Shown here piece by piece: positions 1 through 16,691 of a stretch of DNA of 45,713 nucleotides; the first letter of the stretch is position 1, and the number at the start of each line of letters is the position of its first letter. The stretch is from Lachnospiraceae bacterium. GTDB lineage: Bacteria > Bacillota > Clostridia > Lachnospirales > Lachnospiraceae. The notes under the pieces are model-generated. The model saw nothing but the letters and a program-made list of their open reading frames with translations, ran no database searches and was not told the DNA's origin. The position numbers and the translations under genes were made by a program. The DNA lies in assembly GCA_024696005.1 (NCBI GenBank), contig JAILHF010000032.1:1-45713 (forward strand). The letters run 5' to 3'.

Positions 1-262
1 CGAGCGAGAGCCACAGCAGGGATGCTGTGTTAGGGAGGCGCCATTACGCGAAGCGTAATCTCAAATGCGCCGACCGATGTGCCGCCGACCGTAGGGAGGG
101 GGCGTTTCCGCTCGAGCGGTCCCGGGCTGTACCCGGAATGAAAGCAGCGCCTTAGAGCTGCGTGGCTCCGGAGTGGTGCCCGGACTTATGTACTTCTGCT
201 CTGAGCCAACCATGAGCGTCATCCCGCGAAGTCGACCGCTCACGGTGGTGTAACAAGAAACG
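1..262. other. Non-coding hairpin-rich stretch at left edge
   Basis: I find no credible gene here: forward frames are stop-rich and the reverse open frame has no recognisable product. Several short stems are visible: CACAGC/GCTGTG around an AGGGAT loop (12-29), ATTACGC/GCGTAAT around GAA (43-59), CCGGG/CCCGG (122-136), GCAGC/GCTGC (144-161) and TGAGCG/CGCTCA (213-242), the last extended by ACC/GGT. The density of stems suggests a structured RNA or a palindromic repeat element cut by the window edge. The AGCGAG sequence followed by an AGGGAT-loop hairpin resembles part of the structured RNA at 14804-15023. Identity is not established. Confidence 0.4.
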
Positions 263-1686: not shown

Positions 1687-2616
1687 ATGGCAGGCAAAAA
1701 TAACGCGGTAAATGGTGTTCTTAAACCGCAGGCACTGGCTTTTCTGACGATGGAACCCGAGGAGGAAAAGGCCGCGGAGACCAAAGAGGTCGCCAAAAAG
1801 ACACCTGCAAAGCCGGCCGCGAAACCCGCGGATAACAAGGCCGGTGAACTGAGCCGTGAGGAGACGCGTGCCCTGCTGCGTGAACAGCTGGTTGCGGCTT
1901 CGCCGGATGAGCTTTCCGGGCTTGCGGAAGCGGAGGAAAAGGATCGTGCTCCGAAGAAGAAGGCTGACGGAGCCGGGAAGAAAGATGCTCCGGTGAAGAA
2001 GGAAGCCGCGCCGAAGAAGGAAAGCACACCGGCCAAGAAGCCGGCAGCGGCAAGCGCGAAGAAGGAAAGCGCCCCGGCGAAGAAGCCGGCAGCAGTGAAG
2101 AAGGAAGCCGCCCCGGCCAAGAAGCAGGCGCCGACGGCCGTGAAGAAGGAAGCCGCACCGGCGAAGAAGCCGGCAGCAGTGAAGAAGGAATCTGCACCGG
2201 CAAAGAAGCAGGCAGCTGCAACAGCGAAGAAGGAAAGCGCCCCGGCCAAGAAACAGGCGCCGGCGGCCGTGAAGAAGGAAGCCGCCCCGGCGAAGAAGCA
2301 GGCAGCAGCAACTGCGAAGAAGGAAGCCGCAGCGGTAAAAAAGCAGGCACCGGAACCCCAAAAGAAGGCAGCGGTGAAAAAGAAAGCGGAAGAAAAGCCG
2401 GCCGCCGGGAGAGCAAAGGCGGAGGAGCTGGTGATCGAATACGCCGGAAAGTCCTGGTCCTGCGAAGATCTGACCGAAGAGGCCCTGAAGATCTGGACGC
2501 GCAAACTGAAAAGAGGACGTTCGGAGCTGCACAGCATGGAGCTGTACGTGAAACCCGGAGAGAAGACGGTCTATTACGTCTTTAACGGAACGAGAAAAGG
2601 CAGTTTCGGCATATAA
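1687..2616 (+). CDS. Lys/Ala/Pro-repeat protein with C-terminal DUF6465-like domain
   Basis: This 309-residue protein is very basic and low in complexity. Residues 1-85 are mixed and Glu/Ala/Lys-rich. Residues ~95-240 are a tandem array of 13-15-residue units built on KKEAAPAKKQA / KKESAPAKKPA, resembling the tails of histone H1 and of bacterial histone-like proteins. Residues ~245-309 form a compact non-repetitive domain beginning 'ELVIEYAGKSW' and ending 'VYYVFNGTRKGSFGI', which I recognise as DUF6465-like, a Clostridia family without assigned function. No signal peptide or membrane segment is present. The Lys-rich tail suggests nucleic-acid or polyanion binding, but that is inference. A strong private promoter suggests high expression. 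It directly precedes the heat-shock operon and may be read into it, because no clear terminator follows. Confidence 0.8.
   Translation: MAGKNNAVNGVLKPQALAFLTMEPEEEKAAETKEVAKKTPAKPAAKPADNKAGELSREETRALLREQLVAASPDELSGLAEAEEKDRAPKKKADGAGKKDAPVKKEAAPKKESTPAKKPAAASAKKESAPAKKPAAVKKEAAPAKKQAPTAVKKEAAPAKKPAAVKKESAPAKKQAAATAKKESAPAKKQAPAAVKKEAAPAKKQAAATAKKEAAAVKKQAPEPQKKAAVKKKAEEKPAAGRAKAEELVIEYAGKSWSCEDLTEEALKIWTRKLKRGRSELHSMELYVKPGEKTVYYVFNGTRKGSFGI
1990..2350 (+). repeat. In-frame degenerate tandem repeat (KKEAAPAKK units)
   Basis: Units of roughly 39-48 bp built on aagaaggaagccgc / ccggcgaagaag recur about eight times within the coding sequence, with two alternating spacers (PAAV and QAxxA type). 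Such arrays expand and contract by slippage or recombination, so copy number is likely to vary among strains. Confidence 0.8.
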
Positions 2617-2632
2617 GAAGAACAATTCAGAG

Positions 2633-2684
2633 TACCACTACCGAAGAGCGAAAAAAATGTTGACAAGCTTTAGCGGTAGTGGTA
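2633..2684. promoter_or_regulatory. 11-bp perfect inverted repeat flanking the hrcA -35 box
   Basis: TACCACTACCG (2633-2643) and its exact complement CGGTAGTGGTA (2674-2684) are separated by 30 nt. The right arm reaches the first bases of the -10 and the interval holds the -35. It is not CIRCE and I do not recognise it as a CtsR site. It could be a second operator, or, since TTTTATTT follows, a long-loop terminator of the upstream gene. Confidence 0.55.
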
Positions 2685-2688
2685 TTTT
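2660..2688 (+). promoter_or_regulatory. Sigma-A promoter of the hrcA-grpE-dnaK-dnaJ operon
   Basis: TTGACA (2660-2665), a 17-nt spacer and TATTTT (2683-2688) place transcription start near 2695, immediately before the CIRCE operator. This is the classical arrangement for HrcA control. Confidence 0.85.
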
Positions 2689-2700
2689 ATTTCCAGAGTG

Positions 2701-2727
2701 TTAGCACTCTATAAAACCGAGTGCTAA
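2701..2727. promoter_or_regulatory. CIRCE operator (HrcA binding site)
   Basis: A perfect TTAGCACTC-N9-GAGTGCTAA inverted repeat lies at the expected transcript start, 32 nt before hrcA. HrcA binding here represses the operon under non-stress conditions. An extra half-site-like GAGTGTTAG (2696-2704) immediately precedes it, so GAGTG (2696-2700) can also pair with CACTC (2705-2709) and compete with the standard hairpin. Confidence 0.97.
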
Positions 2728-2758
2728 TAAAACGAGCGGAAAAGGAGGAGCTGCCGCG

Positions 2759-3793
2759 ATGCCGGAAGAATTGGATGAACGGAAAAGGAAGATCCTGCAT
2801 GCCATTATCCGGAACTATCTGGAAACCGGGGAACCGGTGGGCAGCCGTACCATTTCCAAATATACGGATCTGAATCTGAGTTCCGCGACGATACGGAACG
2901 AGATGAGCGATCTGGAGGAAATGGGCTTCATCATCCAGCCGCATACCTCTGCGGGACGCATCCCCACAGACCGGGCTTACCGGATGTACGTGGATCAGAT
3001 GATGGAAGAAAAGGACCGCGAGATCCAGGAACTGAAGGGAATGCTTCTGCAGACCGAGGACAAGATGGACAAGGTCCTGAAGAATGTGGCCCATCTGCTC
3101 GCAACGAACACCAACTATGCGACGGTGGTATCCGCTCCGCAGATCCGCGGGAACCGCGTGAAGTTCATCCAGCTGTCCCGTGTGGATGAGAACCAGCTTC
3201 TGGCGGTCATCGTGGTGGAAGGGAATGTGATCCGCAACGAGATGATCCACGTGGACGAGAGCTTAAGCGATGAGACCATGCTCAAGCTCAACATCCTGCT
3301 GAACACGAACTTGAACGGGCTGGCTCTGGAGCAGATCAATCTCGCGACCATAACGGCATTGAAGGAACAGGCCGGCATCCACAGCGACATCATCGGAAAC
3401 GTGCTGGATGCGGTGGCACAGGCGATCCGCAGCGAAGAGGAACTGGAGATCTATACAAGCGGTTCCAACAACATCCTGAAGTATCCGGAACTGGCGGATC
3501 AGGAGAAAGCGGGAGAGCTGATCCACACCTTTGAAGAAAAGAAAGCGCTGGCCAAGCTGGCGACCGACAAGCTCTCCGATGAGCAGAGCACCGGCATACA
3601 GGTATATATCGGCGAGGAAGCACCCATACAGGCGATGAAGGACTGCAGTGTGGTGACCGCCACCTACGAGCTGGGAGACGGAATGCGCGGAAGCATCGCG
3701 GTGGTGGGACCGAAGCGCATGGATTATGATAAAGTGGTAAACTCACTCCGGACCATGATGAAAGAACTGGAGCGTGTATATAAAAAGGAATGA
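2759..3793 (+). CDS. hrcA: Heat-inducible transcription repressor HrcA
   Basis: The 344-residue protein matches HrcA in length and order. The N-terminal winged helix (residues ~1-75) contains 'ILHAIIRNYLETGEPVGSRTI' features and the 'SSATIRNEMSDLEEMGFIIQPHTSAGRIPTDRAYR' recognition region. A central dimerisation/GAF-like region follows, with a C-terminal 'GSIAVVGPKRMDYDKVV' motif near residue 310. HrcA represses the class I heat-shock operon by binding CIRCE, and GroEL maintains its active form, so the operon senses unfolded protein load. The perfect CIRCE upstream shows autoregulation. GGAGGAG stands at the right distance from the ATG. Confidence 0.98.
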   Translation: MPEELDERKRKILHAIIRNYLETGEPVGSRTISKYTDLNLSSATIRNEMSDLEEMGFIIQPHTSAGRIPTDRAYRMYVDQMMEEKDREIQELKGMLLQTEDKMDKVLKNVAHLLATNTNYATVVSAPQIRGNRVKFIQLSRVDENQLLAVIVVEGNVIRNEMIHVDESLSDETMLKLNILLNTNLNGLALEQINLATITALKEQAGIHSDIIGNVLDAVAQAIRSEEELEIYTSGSNNILKYPELADQEKAGELIHTFEEKKALAKLATDKLSDEQSTGIQVYIGEEAPIQAMKDCSVVTATYELGDGMRGSIAVVGPKRMDYDKVVNSLRTMMKELERVYKKE

Positions 3794-14100: not shown

Positions 14101-14762
14101 TCTATGTCAGCGGGCATCCGCTGGAGGAGTACAGCGGGCTTTGGGACAGGATCATCGGCAATCTCACGAGTGACCTGCAGACGGAAAACGACGGGGACGG
14201 CGAAGAGGACGCGCCCGGAGAACAGGTCGAAGAGGAGCTGAAGGTTTCGGACGGGGAGCTGATCAGCCTGGGCGGCATCCTGGAGGAAGTGAAGGTGATC
14301 TATACCCGAAAGGGCGATGCCATGGCTTATCTCACGCTGGAGGACATGGTATCCCAGGCCGAGATCATCGCGTTCCCGAAGATCTACCGCGAGAACCAGC
14401 GCATACTCACGGAGGGAGCGAAGCTTTTGATCCGGGGGAAGGTGCAGCTGCAGGAGGAGCGGAACGCGAAGCTGATCGCGGAGAGCATCGTTCCGTTTGA
14501 AGAGATCCCGCGCACGCTCTGGCTGCAGTTTGATTCCAAAGGGCAGAAGGAAGAGCTCTGGCCGCAGATCGACAGACTGCTGACGGAAAACGAAGGCGGG
14601 GATGGCGTGAAACTCTATTTTGCCGACGCGGACAGGATACAGGAACTGCCGCCGGACCACTGTGTGCATGCGGATCTCGGCCTGCGGGAGAAGCTGGAGG
14701 CACTGCTCGGCAGGGATAACGTGCGCCTGACTTACCGGCCGCCCGTCATGCGGCGCAGCTGA
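11166..14762 (+). CDS. dnaE: DNA polymerase III alpha subunit DnaE
   Basis: The 1198-residue C-family polymerase starts with a PHP domain ('HLHVHTEYSLLDG', 'ITDHGVMYGVIDFY', 'LGCEVYVAP'). The palm carries 'VGPGRGSAAGS' and the catalytic 'PDIDVDF' aspartates. The finger region contains 'YQEQVMRIV' and 'FNKSHAASYA'. A helix-hairpin-helix region is followed by a clamp-binding QISLF motif (about residue 939) and an OB-fold ('GGILEEVKVIYTRKGDAMAYLTLED'). In Firmicutes with PolC, DnaE extends primers; otherwise it is the replicase. Which applies is not visible here. After the DxD the usual ERR is FRR, a small departure from common Firmicute sequences. The start has a GGGGAGA ribosome site. Confidence 0.97.
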   Translation: MAFVHLHVHTEYSLLDGANKISEYVKRVKELGMNAAAITDHGVMYGVIDFYEAAKAAGIKPILGCEVYVAPNSRFDKEITGGEDRYNHLILLAENEQGYKNLMKIVSIGFTEGYYYKPRVDKEVLARYHEGLICLSACLAGSVPRMITRGQLEDAREEARWFKETFGPGNYYLELQDHGLPDQRLVNMELLNISRELDIPLAATNDCHYTYPEDAEPHDVLICVQTKKTINDPDRMRSYEGGQFYVKSEEEMRAVFPYAPEALENTALIAERCNVEIRFGERKLPHYEVPEGYDSWTYLNKLCDDGLKRRYASCAEGAEPSEESRMLRERLDHELSIIREMGFVDYFLIVWDFINYSKSHGIPVGPGRGSAAGSIVSYCIGITDTDPIRYQLLFERFLNPERVSMPDIDVDFGTFRRQDVIDYVSEKYGPEKVVQIIAFGTLKAKAAIGAVGRALDIPFARRNEISKMIPNDLGITLDKALEMNPDLRALYEQDSEVMRLIDMSRKLEGLPRSVTLHAAGVVICPEAADNLIPLSRGGDNNPITTQFPAPTLEHLGLLKMDFLALRNLDVIVQAVDYIRTGRGEEIDINALDYSDPKVFSYIGTGKCDGIFQLESSGMKNFMKELRPGNLEDVIAGLALYRPGPMSIIPQYIESREHPEKVHYDCDRLEPILAPTYGFIVYQEQVMRIVRDLAGYTMGRSDNLRRAMSKKKAKDMDRERAIFVYGNDSEIEKAKEEGKPESEWPRPVPGCVRNGIGEEVANGIYDLLIRFADYGFNKSHAASYAMISYQTAWLKYYYPAEYMAALMTSVADSAKKVAAYNMIARQMGLKLLPPDVNRGGVGFTVSGDGIVYSLVAISGIGNGFVQELMDEREAHGEFRDAADFLERMIPKGVNKRQVENLIKAGAMDCFGATRKQLMYVYQPLMDSITKQKKQEMNGQISLFDLGDEELKKSVTVSLPENVGEYPRDVLLSFEKEMLGIYVSGHPLEEYSGLWDRIIGNLTSDLQTENDGDGEEDAPGEQVEEELKVSDGELISLGGILEEVKVIYTRKGDAMAYLTLEDMVSQAEIIAFPKIYRENQRILTEGAKLLIRGKVQLQEERNAKLIAESIVPFEEIPRTLWLQFDSKGQKEELWPQIDRLLTENEGGDGVKLYFADADRIQELPPDHCVHADLGLREKLEALLGRDNVRLTYRPPVMRRS

Positions 14763-14803
14763 GGAGCACCCCCTAGAGAATGATGCTGTTCAGTCTGCTG
14801 TTA

Positions 14804-15023
14804 CTGCAGGCAGATATTTGTCCGTGGCAACCTATGGAGGAGCTTAGCCACTCTCGAAACTGCATGAAAGATCAGGAACGCGAAGCCCGGATGGCTGAGC
14901 GAGGCAGACTACGGCAGGGATGCCGAATGTCGACTGGTTTCGTACTGTTTGAATCCGGTCAAGGCAGTTTCGCTGAGTGGCTTGGCGACGGAATCGGGCG
15001 CCACGGACTATATCTGCATGCAG
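14804..15023 (+). ncRNA. Predicted ~220-nt structured RNA (possibly raiA-motif class)
   Basis: The 426-nt gap after dnaE contains nested long-range pairings. An outer stem joins CTGCA (14804-14808), GCAGATAT (14810-14817) and GTCCGTGG (14820-14827) to CCACGGAC (15001-15008), ATATCTGC (15010-15017) and TGCAG (15019-15023). An inner stem joins AGCCACTC (14846-14853) and CGAAACTGC (14855-14863) to GCAGTTTCG (14964-14972) and GAGTGGCT (14975-14982). Within it are CGGC-AGGGAT-GCCG (14912-14925) and GACTGG/CCGGTC (14932-14960). GCCCG (14885-14889) with CGGGC (14995-14999) would make a pseudoknot. About 40 long-range base pairs are hard to explain by chance. Size and shape suggest the raiA-motif RNA of Clostridia, but I cannot confirm the class. 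Strand is assigned from neighbours and the downstream layout. No upstream promoter or clear terminator is certain. Confidence 0.8.
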
Positions 15024-15065
15024 AAGGACAATGCTTAGTAAATAGCGATTAATCTGTTTTTAACG

Positions 15066-15094
15066 TTGAAAGAGGGGGCGGAAACCGTTATAAT
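15066..15094 (+). promoter_or_regulatory. Promoter of the arabinose module
   Basis: TTGAAA (15066-15071), a 17-nt spacer and TATAAT (15089-15094) predict a leader of about 88 nt before the GH51 gene. No clear operator repeat was seen in the leader. Confidence 0.8.
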
Positions 15095-15188
15095 GTAAAA
15101 GCGGCGGTTTTCGCTCCTCTTGGATTCTTTGAGAGCAGGCGGGGACGCGGCGTATTCCAAAATATATCAGGAAAAGGAGAAGAAGCTA

Positions 15189-16691
15189 ATGAAGCTGTTC
15201 ATCAATCCGAAACACAGTCAGGGGCACATCAATCCCGAACTGCAGGGGCATTTTTCCGAACATCTGGGGCGCTGCATCTACGAAGGTCTTTATGTGGGCG
15301 AAAACAACAAGGACATCCCGAATGTGAACGGGATGCGCACGGACGTGGTGGAGGCTCTGAAGCAGATCCGGATCCCCGTTCTGCGCTGGCCCGGAGGCTG
15401 CTTTGCCGATGAGTATCACTGGAAAGACGGGATCGGCCCGAAGGAAAGCCGGAAAAAGATGATCAACACCCACTGGGGCGGTGTGGTAGAGGATAACAGT
15501 TTCGGAACCCATGAGTTCATGGAGCTCTGCCGCCAGCTGGGCTGCAAGACCTATGTCAACGGCAACCTGGGGAGCGGTACCGTTCAGGAGATGAGTGAGT
15601 GGGTCGAATACATGACCTTTGAAGGTGTTTCGCCGATGGCGGACCAGCGGAAAGCAAACGGCCATGAAGCACCCTGGACCGTGGATTATTTCGGTGTGGG
15701 CAATGAGAACTGGGGCTGCGGCGGAAACATGCGGCCGGAGTATTACGGCGACCTTTACCGCCGTTACCAGACCTATGTCCGCAATTACGATCCGAAGAAG
15801 CCGATCTTCAAGATCGCTTGCGGAGCTAATGCCCAGGACTATGATTGGACCGAAGGCGTGATGAAGACCTGTTTCCGGGGAGCAGACCAGTTCCACGGAT
15901 TCATGGACGGCATTTCCCTTCATTACTACACGGTGCCCGGCGGCTGGGAGCATAAGGGAAGCGCCGTGGATTTCGATGAGAAGCGCTGGTACAAGACGAT
16001 GGCCACCACGCTTTTCATGGAGGAACTGATCCGCAAGCACGAAGCCGTGATGATCCGTCACGACAAGGATCACAAGGTGGCCCTGATCGTGGATGAATGG
16101 GGCACCTGGTATGATGTGGAGGAAGGCACCAATCCGGGCTTTCTGTATCAGCAGAACACGATCCGCGATGCGCTCGTGGCCGGCATCAACCTGAATATCT
16201 TCAACAAGCACTGCGACCGCGTGAAGATGGCAAACATCGCGCAGCTCGTGAACGTGCTGCAGGCCGTGATCCTTACGGACGGCGATAAGATGATCAAAAC
16301 GCCGACCTATCATGTATTCGACATGTACAAGCATCATCAGGATGCGGAACTGGTGGAGAGCTATGTGGAGAACGAGACCATCGGCATCGAGGATGAGAAC
16401 AAGGTCCCCGCGCTTCATGAGTCGGTTTCCCTCGGGAAGGACGGAAAGCTCCACATCACGATCAACAATCTGTCCGCCGAAAAGGATTATGAGATCGAAG
16501 GCATCGTGACCGATTCCGAGATAAAGGGTGTGAGTGCCGAGATCGTGAGCGGAGAGATGCACGAACATAACAGCTTTGACGATCCGGAACGCGTTACGAA
16601 AAAGAGCTTTTCGGATGTGAGCATCAAAGACAACCGCATCTGCTTCACGATCCCGAAGTGCAGTGTCATGCACATCGCGGTCGAGATCTGA
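15189..16691 (+). CDS. GH51 alpha-L-arabinofuranosidase, intracellular
   Basis: The 500-residue enzyme matches GH51 in length and motifs: '[17 protein letters not shown]' at the start, '[15 protein letters not shown]' (~60), the acid/base Glu173 in 'GNENWGCGG' and the nucleophile Glu303 in 'IVDEWGTWY'. A C-terminal beta domain follows. It removes terminal arabinofuranose from arabinan, arabinoxylan or their oligosaccharides. No signal peptide is present, so it acts on imported oligosaccharides. I chose ATG 15189 because AAGGAGA (15174-15180) lies 8 nt before it and homology begins there; an upstream TTG in frame has no support. With the kinase and epimerase downstream it forms an arabinose-use module, although the isomerase araA is absent. 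Confidence 0.95.

What the first reader, a model, noticed from the sequence alone, without database searches (positions are those of the whole stretch)
14804..15023. A ~220-nt structured RNA between dnaE and the arabinose module
The sequence shows an outer stem of about 21 pairs and a nested stem of 17 pairs (AGCCACTC/GAGTGGCT and CGAAACTGC/GCAGTTTCG), internal hairpins with an AGGGAT loop, and a possible pseudoknot GCCCG/CGGGC. This is far beyond a terminator or leader. It resembles large Clostridial RNA classes such as the raiA motif; class assignment is from memory and unconfirmed. It could act in trans and has no link in function to either neighbour.
Basis: partly seen in the sequence, partly recalled or inferred. 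Interest (0 to 1): 0.85.

Follow-up and report, generated by a model that had tools for sequence, protein, structure and literature searches.

The report
Dispersed folding repeat (TwoAYGGAY), mobile-like
The foldable stretch is real, but it is one of about two dozen scattered copies of a known "orphan RNA" (TwoAYGGAY) that behaves like a small mobile repeat and may work as folded DNA rather than as a regulatory RNA.

Summary
The structure at 14804-15023 is real (RNA fold z -5.9, DNA fold z -7.5). It is not raiA but Rfam TwoAYGGAY (RF01731, 66.9 bits, cut-off 43). New is what TwoAYGGAY looks like here: a dispersed, lineage-amplified palindromic repeat. The own genome has 24 copies over the cut-off; 22 of 24 have their nearest relative in the same genome. 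At three sites tested no held relative locus carries one (0 of 18, 25, 17); nrdD and nrdG lie 44 nt apart or less in 18 of 25 relatives, about 350 here with a copy between. Stems covary in 36 of 38 pairs, almost only between Watson-Crick pairs: G-U is 1.9-2.6% of standard pairs against 6.8% in 6S and 13.5% in RNase P RNA of the genus. That suggests pairing kept at DNA level; an RNA role is not excluded. The published CsrA-sponge idea is weakened: loop retention does not track csrA. No mobilising enzyme was found; Y1 transposases are absent here, others were not sought. A second copy, interrupted by GA-cis, starts the window at an assembly break.

The parts
14804..15023 (+). whole TwoAYGGAY element (type A copy), bounded by the outer stem CTGCAGGCAG...CTGCATGCAG
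   Evidence: folds; similarity among own copies stops there
14833..14996 (+). Rfam TwoAYGGAY RF01731 core match
   Evidence: 66.9 bits, cut-off 43
14804..14828 (+). outer stem, 5' arm; here GTCC stands where most type A copies have GGAC (tandem G.A opposite the 3' arm)
15000..15023 (+). outer stem, 3' arm
14846..14863 (+). inner stem, 5' arms AGCCACTC and CGAAACTGC
   Evidence: covariation
14964..14982 (+). inner stem, 3' arms GCAGTTTCG and GAGTGGCT
   Evidence: covariation
14879..14901 (+). hairpin 1, loop CGGAT (GGA motif)
14907..14931 (+). hairpin 2, tip AGGGAT (GGA motif)
1..237 (+). 3' part of a second TwoAYGGAY copy (type B), cut by the contig start; 3' end approximate
31..111 (+). 81-bp GA-cis (RF02987) insert inside that second copy
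   Evidence: Rfam match 29-113, 62.4 bits; identical 81-mer in L043, L180, L187 and L192

Best explanation
The element is a copy of a non-autonomous, mobile-like palindromic repeat of about 220 bp (type A; the sister type B is 306-312 bp between its terminal motifs), namely the Rfam family TwoAYGGAY. Shown: many dispersed intergenic copies, lineage-specific amplification, sites unoccupied in relatives, pairing kept by double Watson-Crick changes, GGA hairpin loops kept in most copies. Inferred: the folded top strand is exposed as single-stranded DNA (or the duplex extrudes a cruciform), an enzyme supplied in trans recognises stem and loops and copies or moves it, copies decay after insertion, and mainly well-paired copies multiply. 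Arm-templated repair of the hairpin may add to the Watson-Crick-only pattern. The copy between dnaE and the arabinofuranosidase-like gene has no evident function for either gene.
For: 24 copies over cut-off in one genome; matches in 30 of 98 genomes, own included, 5 of 60 genera, patchy; 36 of 391 genomes of the class; 18 matches, 16 over cut-off, scattered round a one-contig 3.1 Mb genome. 0 of 46 copies inside predicted genes. Nearest neighbour in the same genome for 72 of 142 copies against 9 expected, 22 of 24 in the own genome. Unoccupied sites: nrdD-nrdG 44 nt or less in 18 of 25 relatives; a jag-like gene directly before mnmE in 13 of 17; no copy in 25, 17 or 18 held loci at the three sites. 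Two-sided change in 36 of 38 pairs with G-U only 2.6% of standard pairs (1.9-2.0% after dereplication) against 6.8% (6S) and 13.5% (RNase P), and 3 of 1100 in hairpin 2. Top strand folds better than bottom in 92% of 148 copies with DNA parameters. Both orientations to genes occur: 77 with, 49 against the downstream gene, 21 undetermined.
Against: No target-site duplication was seen and no mobilising gene found. The top strand also folds better with RNA parameters (86% of copies with 20-nt flanks, 80% for the core; RNase P and 6S 100%). G-U exceeds A-C, 86 to 26 in the core, as RNA selection predicts; 56 of the 86 sit in three columns. Among copies at least 95% alike G-U makes up 31.5% of 89 differing pairs. 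DNA and RNA z-scores do not discriminate (DNA more extreme in 16 of 32; 6S 7 of 16, RNase P 4 of 14). Mean conservation of unpaired columns equals that of stem columns (0.674 and 0.675). Mild co-orientation with genes; 11 of 13 type A own copies share the strand of the downstream gene, type B 5 of 11. Unoccupied sites were compared with other species, not strains, so exact insertion ends are not shown. Only two RNA families served as G-U controls, both less divergent than the element.
Confidence: 0.6

Rival explanations
1. A CsrA-binding sponge RNA: each copy carries two GGA hairpin loops that hold one CsrA dimer, and many copies titrate CsrA (CsrA binding was proposed in PMC4333381, passages read).
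For: GGA in loop 2 of 158 of 160 and in loop 1 of 132 of 160 aligned copies. CsrA is present in the own genome; 71 of 98 genomes, own included, pass the cut-off.
Against: 5 of the 6 genomes of the genus without a csrA match carry the element, against 21 of 29 with one. Both loops keep GGA in 18 of 22 copies from csrA-less genomes and 114 of 138 from the rest, the same share: all 18 in G020, G026 and G031 keep both, the 4 in csrA-less G008 lack it in loop 1, and so do all 17 in csrA-bearing G012, G016 and G019. No shared promoter or terminator is apparent. csrA loss could be recent or a draft gap (G008 is 88% complete).
Confidence: 0.15
2. An RNA element in untranslated regions, mobile or not, that affects transcript ends or stability of its neighbours, selected as RNA.
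For: Strong covariation; top strand folds better as RNA; G-U over A-C 86:26; copies co-oriented with both neighbours 46, against both 28; type A 11 of 13 with the downstream gene.
Against: Very low G-U fraction; 49 of 126 copies with a determined downstream gene face against it; in the window the promoter-like site for the next gene lies 3' of the element, so it would not be in that gene's leader.
Confidence: 0.2
3. A palindrome without function: arm-to-arm template switching keeps the arms matched and produces covariation without selection.
For: In 4 of 24 own copies (window, L053, L002, L048) the 5' arm reads GTCC, matching the 3' arm, where other copies have G.A mismatches (direction of change inferred). 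Double Watson-Crick changes are 15.7% of 89 differing pairs between copies at least 95% alike.
Against: In the two type A cases the match comes with an extra base beside it, so it is not exact copying. GGA of hairpin 2 and a few other unpaired letters are 99-100% conserved while stems have turned over; but unpaired columns as a whole are no more conserved than stems. Spread over many genera.
Confidence: 0.05

Closest known systems
TwoAYGGAY RNA motif (Rfam RF01731; PMC2864571)
   Same: Core scores above the cut-off over the whole model; two hairpins with GGA loops; helices match.
   Different: Listed as probably an RNA, not cis-regulatory, in PMC2864571 (passage read) and typed Cis-reg in Rfam. 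Here: multi-copy dispersed repeat, extended outer stem, very few G-U pairs. The window's hairpin 1 has a five-base CGGAT loop.
MITEs and ERIC/REP-like intergenic palindromes (features recalled)
   Same: Short, non-coding, imperfect palindromes, intergenic, tens of copies, nested insertions, patchy.
   Different: Conserved multi-hairpin interior with fixed loops; no duplication or partner transposase found; REP-style Y1 transposase absent from this genome.
raiA RNA (RF03072)
   Same: Large structured RNA of Clostridia (recalled).
   Different: Not among the matches at E up to 5.
GA-cis RNA (RF02987)
   Same: Also an Rfam RNA that is repeated here; the 5 matches listed in the own genome lie in TwoAYGGAY copies.
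   Different: 81-bp insert, different fold. In other genomes it is mostly not with TwoAYGGAY: 1 of 17 loci scanned.

Membership tests
TwoAYGGAY (RF01731) | Covariance-model score above gathering cut-off | tested here: met
   66.9 against 43 bits, positions 1-168 of 168
TwoAYGGAY (RF01731) | Two terminal loops of type AYGGAY | tested here: inconclusive
   Window loops are CGGAT (one base short) and AGGGAT; GGA in both
raiA (RF03072) | Match to the raiA model | tested here: not met
   Not listed at E up to 5 in 14700-15200
MITE | Many short non-coding copies with terminal inverted repeats | tested here: met
   24 own copies; terminal stems in types A and B
MITE | Target-site duplication | tested here: inconclusive
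   None apparent by eye in flanks of own copies, but the exact ends are uncertain
MITE | Partner transposase with the same ends | not tested
   Only Y1 transposases were sought
REP/RAYT or IS200/IS605-derived | Y1 (PF01797) transposase in the genome | tested here: not met
   0 in own genome; 13 of 26 copy-bearing genomes of the genus have none
CsrA-sponge sRNA | GGA hairpin loops | tested here: met
   both loops of the window copy; 132 of 160 copies in both
CsrA-sponge sRNA | Occurrence tied to CsrA | tested here: not met
   5 of 6 csrA-less against 21 of 29 csrA-bearing genomes of the genus
CsrA-sponge sRNA | Transcript that binds CsrA | not testable with these tools
   needs RNA-seq and a binding assay

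The most novel reading that the evidence does not exclude
TwoAYGGAY is not a regulatory RNA at all but a class of non-autonomous mobile elements that act as folded single-stranded DNA, with GGA-loop hairpins as recognition marks for an unidentified, non-Y1 enzyme; Rfam motifs found by covariation would then include mobile DNA hairpins, and the share of G-U pairs could separate them from true RNAs.
Probability: 0.35. Interest if true: 0.75.

Novelty: new variant of a known kind. Interest (0 to 1): 0.5.

Why it matters
An orphan RNA class described in 2010 gets a different and testable reading. If right, covariation alone does not prove an RNA, and a near-absence of G-U pairs is a cheap flag for folded DNA elements among orphan motifs. 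It also gives a search target for a mobilising enzyme in Clostridia, and explains an assembly break in this genome.

Tried and rejected
Rejected: raiA; pseudoknot GCCCG/CGGGC; coding by the 90-aa ORF 14780-15052: read from the shared ATGGAGGAGCT, the frame closes before 55 codons in 7 of 10 type A copies and 3 more lack the motif; Y1/RAYT mobilisation. Phage or plasmid carriage: the window's sequence has no match in the phage or plasmid collections and two exact patterns none in viral contigs; a looser pattern hit two viral contigs that the covariance model does not match. Replication-strand bias: 29 with, 17 against local G skew, weak. DNA against RNA z-scores: inconclusive.

Rows left out: the 6S control used 16 of 17 hits (one partial, L330, dropped); only 5 of the 17 pass the Rfam cut-off. 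The RNase P control used 27 of 30 fetched loci, the weakest three dropped. Of 233 matches counted, 148 distinct copies with 60-nt flanks were kept and used, 147 of them; 117 and 43 matches entered the model alignments. Gene calls are from a simple codon model trained on the window, also applied to other genomes.

Errors corrected: the cores of L009-L037 were used without turning those on the minus strand; inherited this. rebuilt the profile with correct strands, and results from then on rest on it. Negative gaps printed for minus-strand loci are a sign artefact of my script; I converted them. On re-checking the draft I corrected several counts and narrowed the claims on loop conservation, arm copying and GA-cis; GA-cis was taken out of the novel case, so its odds stay.

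Full report
What is there. The stretch 14804-15023 folds as described: an outer stem of 22 pairs in three runs, a nested stem with the named runs of 8 and 9 pairs, and inner hairpins (z -5.93, 0 of 200 shuffles as stable). The bottom strand is almost as extreme, the top strand as DNA more so. Rfam assigns 14833-14996 to TwoAYGGAY, RF01731, at 66.9 bits against a cut-off of 43; a permissive search of 14700-15200 lists two other, sub-threshold families but no raiA.

A dispersed repeat. The same model finds 24 copies over the cut-off in the own genome (3.75 Mb, 74 contigs). Of 98 genomes, own included, 30 have matches (29 over the cut-off), in 5 of 60 genera, with 0 to 21 in the others (stricter filters). 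Over the class 36 of 391 genomes match, 27 over the cut-off, with at most seven candidates scored per genome. In a one-contig genome, G134, 18 matches (16 over the cut-off) lie round the chromosome on both strands. Named records with one type A signature, nine stretches, are all Lachnospiraceae metagenome assemblies, five of the nine with sheep rumen or goat omasum in the contig name. The own copies fall into type A and A-like (13, the window's among them; two, L097 and L098, have other outer-stem sequences) and type B (11); by eye similarity stops at the stem ends, perhaps a little further 5' in type B. Type B has a further outer inverted repeat, CGGCTTTGCGGGATGA/TCATCCCGCAAAGCCG. Some relatives hold head-to-head pairs within one larger palindromic unit. 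None of 46 copies in the own genome, G034 and G002 lies inside a predicted gene.

Amplified within lineages, absent from the same sites elsewhere. Of 142 copies in genomes with more than one, 72 have their closest relative in the same genome, 9 expected by shuffling; in the own genome 22 of 24. Some genomes (G012, G019) instead share near-identical copies across species, so amplification is not always species-specific. At nrdD-nrdG the own genome has about 350 bp with a type A copy; of 25 relatives, 18 have 44 nt or less between the genes, often an overlapping ATGTAATG, 3 have about 172-457 nt of other sequence, and in 4 the held stretch does not hold both genes. Between a jag-like gene and mnmE the own genome has two genes and a type B copy; 13 of 17 relatives have the jag-like gene directly before mnmE. 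No copy was found in the 25, 17 and, for the window's right neighbour, 18 held loci. For the window's own copy this is absence near one gene, not a clean empty site: in the 14 relatives with matches to both the dnaE part and the right neighbour, the two lie on different contigs.

How the pairing evolves. On 117 copies aligned to a covariance model built here from 38 copies, 95.1% of cells pair (67.1% shuffled, 32-41% with partners slid) and 36 of 38 pairs show two-sided change. The alignment was fitted to this structure, which favours pairing. G-U makes up 2.6% of standard pairs, and 2.0, 1.9 and 2.0% after dereplication at 90, 80 and 70% identity, against 6.8% for 6S (16 sequences) and 13.5% for RNase P RNA (27) of the same genus; in hairpin 2 it is 3 of 1100 with 411 two-sided changes. 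Among copies at least 95% alike, 49.4% of 89 differing pairs are one-sided mismatches, 31.5% G-U and 15.7% double Watson-Crick changes; between distant copies double Watson-Crick changes dominate (73.7%). My reading: copies decay after insertion, and the lineages that go on multiplying are those with Watson-Crick stems. That is expected if DNA is the folded substrate, since G-T is a mismatch there; it does not prove it. In four own copies, the window's among them, the outer stem's usual G.A mismatches are absent because the 5' arm reads GTCC, complementary to the 3' arm; arm-templated repair could do this, but in the two type A cases an extra base stands beside it.

Results that speak for RNA or against my reading. 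G-U exceeds A-C, 86 to 26 in the core, though 56 of the 86 sit in three columns. The top strand folds better than the bottom with RNA parameters in 86% of 148 copies (80% for the bare core), with DNA parameters in 92%, so the top strand matters either way. Shuffle z-scores under the two parameter sets do not separate the cases. Unpaired columns are on average no more conserved than stem columns; conservation is concentrated in a few letters, GGA of hairpin 2, GA of hairpin 1 and an AG..A before hairpin 1. Copies face with the downstream gene 77 times and against it 49 times, a mild bias; in the own genome type A shows 11 of 13 and type B 5 of 11.

CsrA. The two GGA loops led the authors of PMC4333381 (passages read) to propose CsrA binding. 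In this genus 5 of 6 genomes without a csrA match have copies against 21 of 29 with one (one of the 29 is a fragment at a contig end). Both loops keep GGA in 18 of 22 copies from csrA-less genomes and in 114 of 138 from the others. The exceptions follow lineage, not csrA: csrA-bearing G012, G016 and G019 (17 copies) and csrA-less G008 (4) all lack it in hairpin 1. Loop 2 keeps GGA in 158 of 160 copies, which still calls for a recognising partner.

What moves it. Unknown. Y1 transposases (REP and IS200/IS605 type) are absent from the own genome and from 13 of 26 carriers in the genus. The phage, plasmid and viral collections gave no copy with the queries used. I saw no target-site duplication. 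Other enzyme families were not searched.

Second copy and GA-cis. The window begins inside a type B copy interrupted by GA-cis (RF02987, 62.4 bits): an 81-bp insert, identical at five contig places, at the same point of the host repeat. Four of these places are contig ends that share the same 140 bp, so the assembly broke in this repeat; they probably stand for two loci, with one further intact locus on contig 73. There the 200-bp stretch is 88.5% identical to the window's while the 81 bp are identical. The five GA-cis matches listed in the own genome thus all lie in TwoAYGGAY copies; of 17 GA-cis loci from other genomes only one has TwoAYGGAY near, so the link is not general.

Literature. 'TwoAYGGAY' is in 7 papers of the library, 5 listed; I read the matching passages in all five, not the whole papers. 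None of those passages mentions dispersed copies, mobility or a DNA-level reading; the listings show none by title. Precedents exist: PMC2864571 suggests single-stranded DNA as a possible form of another motif, STAXI (passage), and PMC8040213 finds 250 palindromic candidates among 3161 and names REPs as a known palindromic class (passages). PMC7657543 notes extra covarying pairs that lengthen a helix of TwoAYGGAY (passage), in line with the long outer stem here. Subscription papers and Rfam's own pages were not available, so prior notice is possible.

Noticed in passing
window 1-237: Truncated second TwoAYGGAY copy interrupted by an 81-bp GA-cis element; the contig start lies in this repeat and four contig ends share the same 140 bp.
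   Followed up: yes
L101, L103, L104, L105 around 2350-3110: Head-to-head TwoAYGGAY pairs inside one larger palindromic unit of roughly 650-700 bp with ends like AAATTCATGTTTATCGA in G018 and G032.
   Followed up: partly
L110 (G004) 2350-3050: Two TwoAYGGAY copies in tandem, 219 bp apart, with short direct repeats at one side.
   Followed up: no
L152, L157 after nrdD: A stretch starting GCGATAAGCGACGA follows nrdD in two relatives, with an inverted copy at the other end in L157, and its left end also precedes the TwoAYGGAY copy in the own genome: the site seems to attract repeats.
   Followed up: partly
window 15066-15094: Promoter-like TTGAAA-17-TATAAT downstream of the element, ahead of the arabinofuranosidase-like gene.
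   Followed up: no
L050 between 878 and 2815: Two extra genes (171 aa, and a methyltransferase-like protein of up to 310 aa) sit between the jag-like gene and mnmE in the own genome, next to a type B copy.
   Followed up: no
window 1954-2372: Internal repeats in the lysine/alanine-rich 309-aa ORF at 1687-2616.
   Followed up: no
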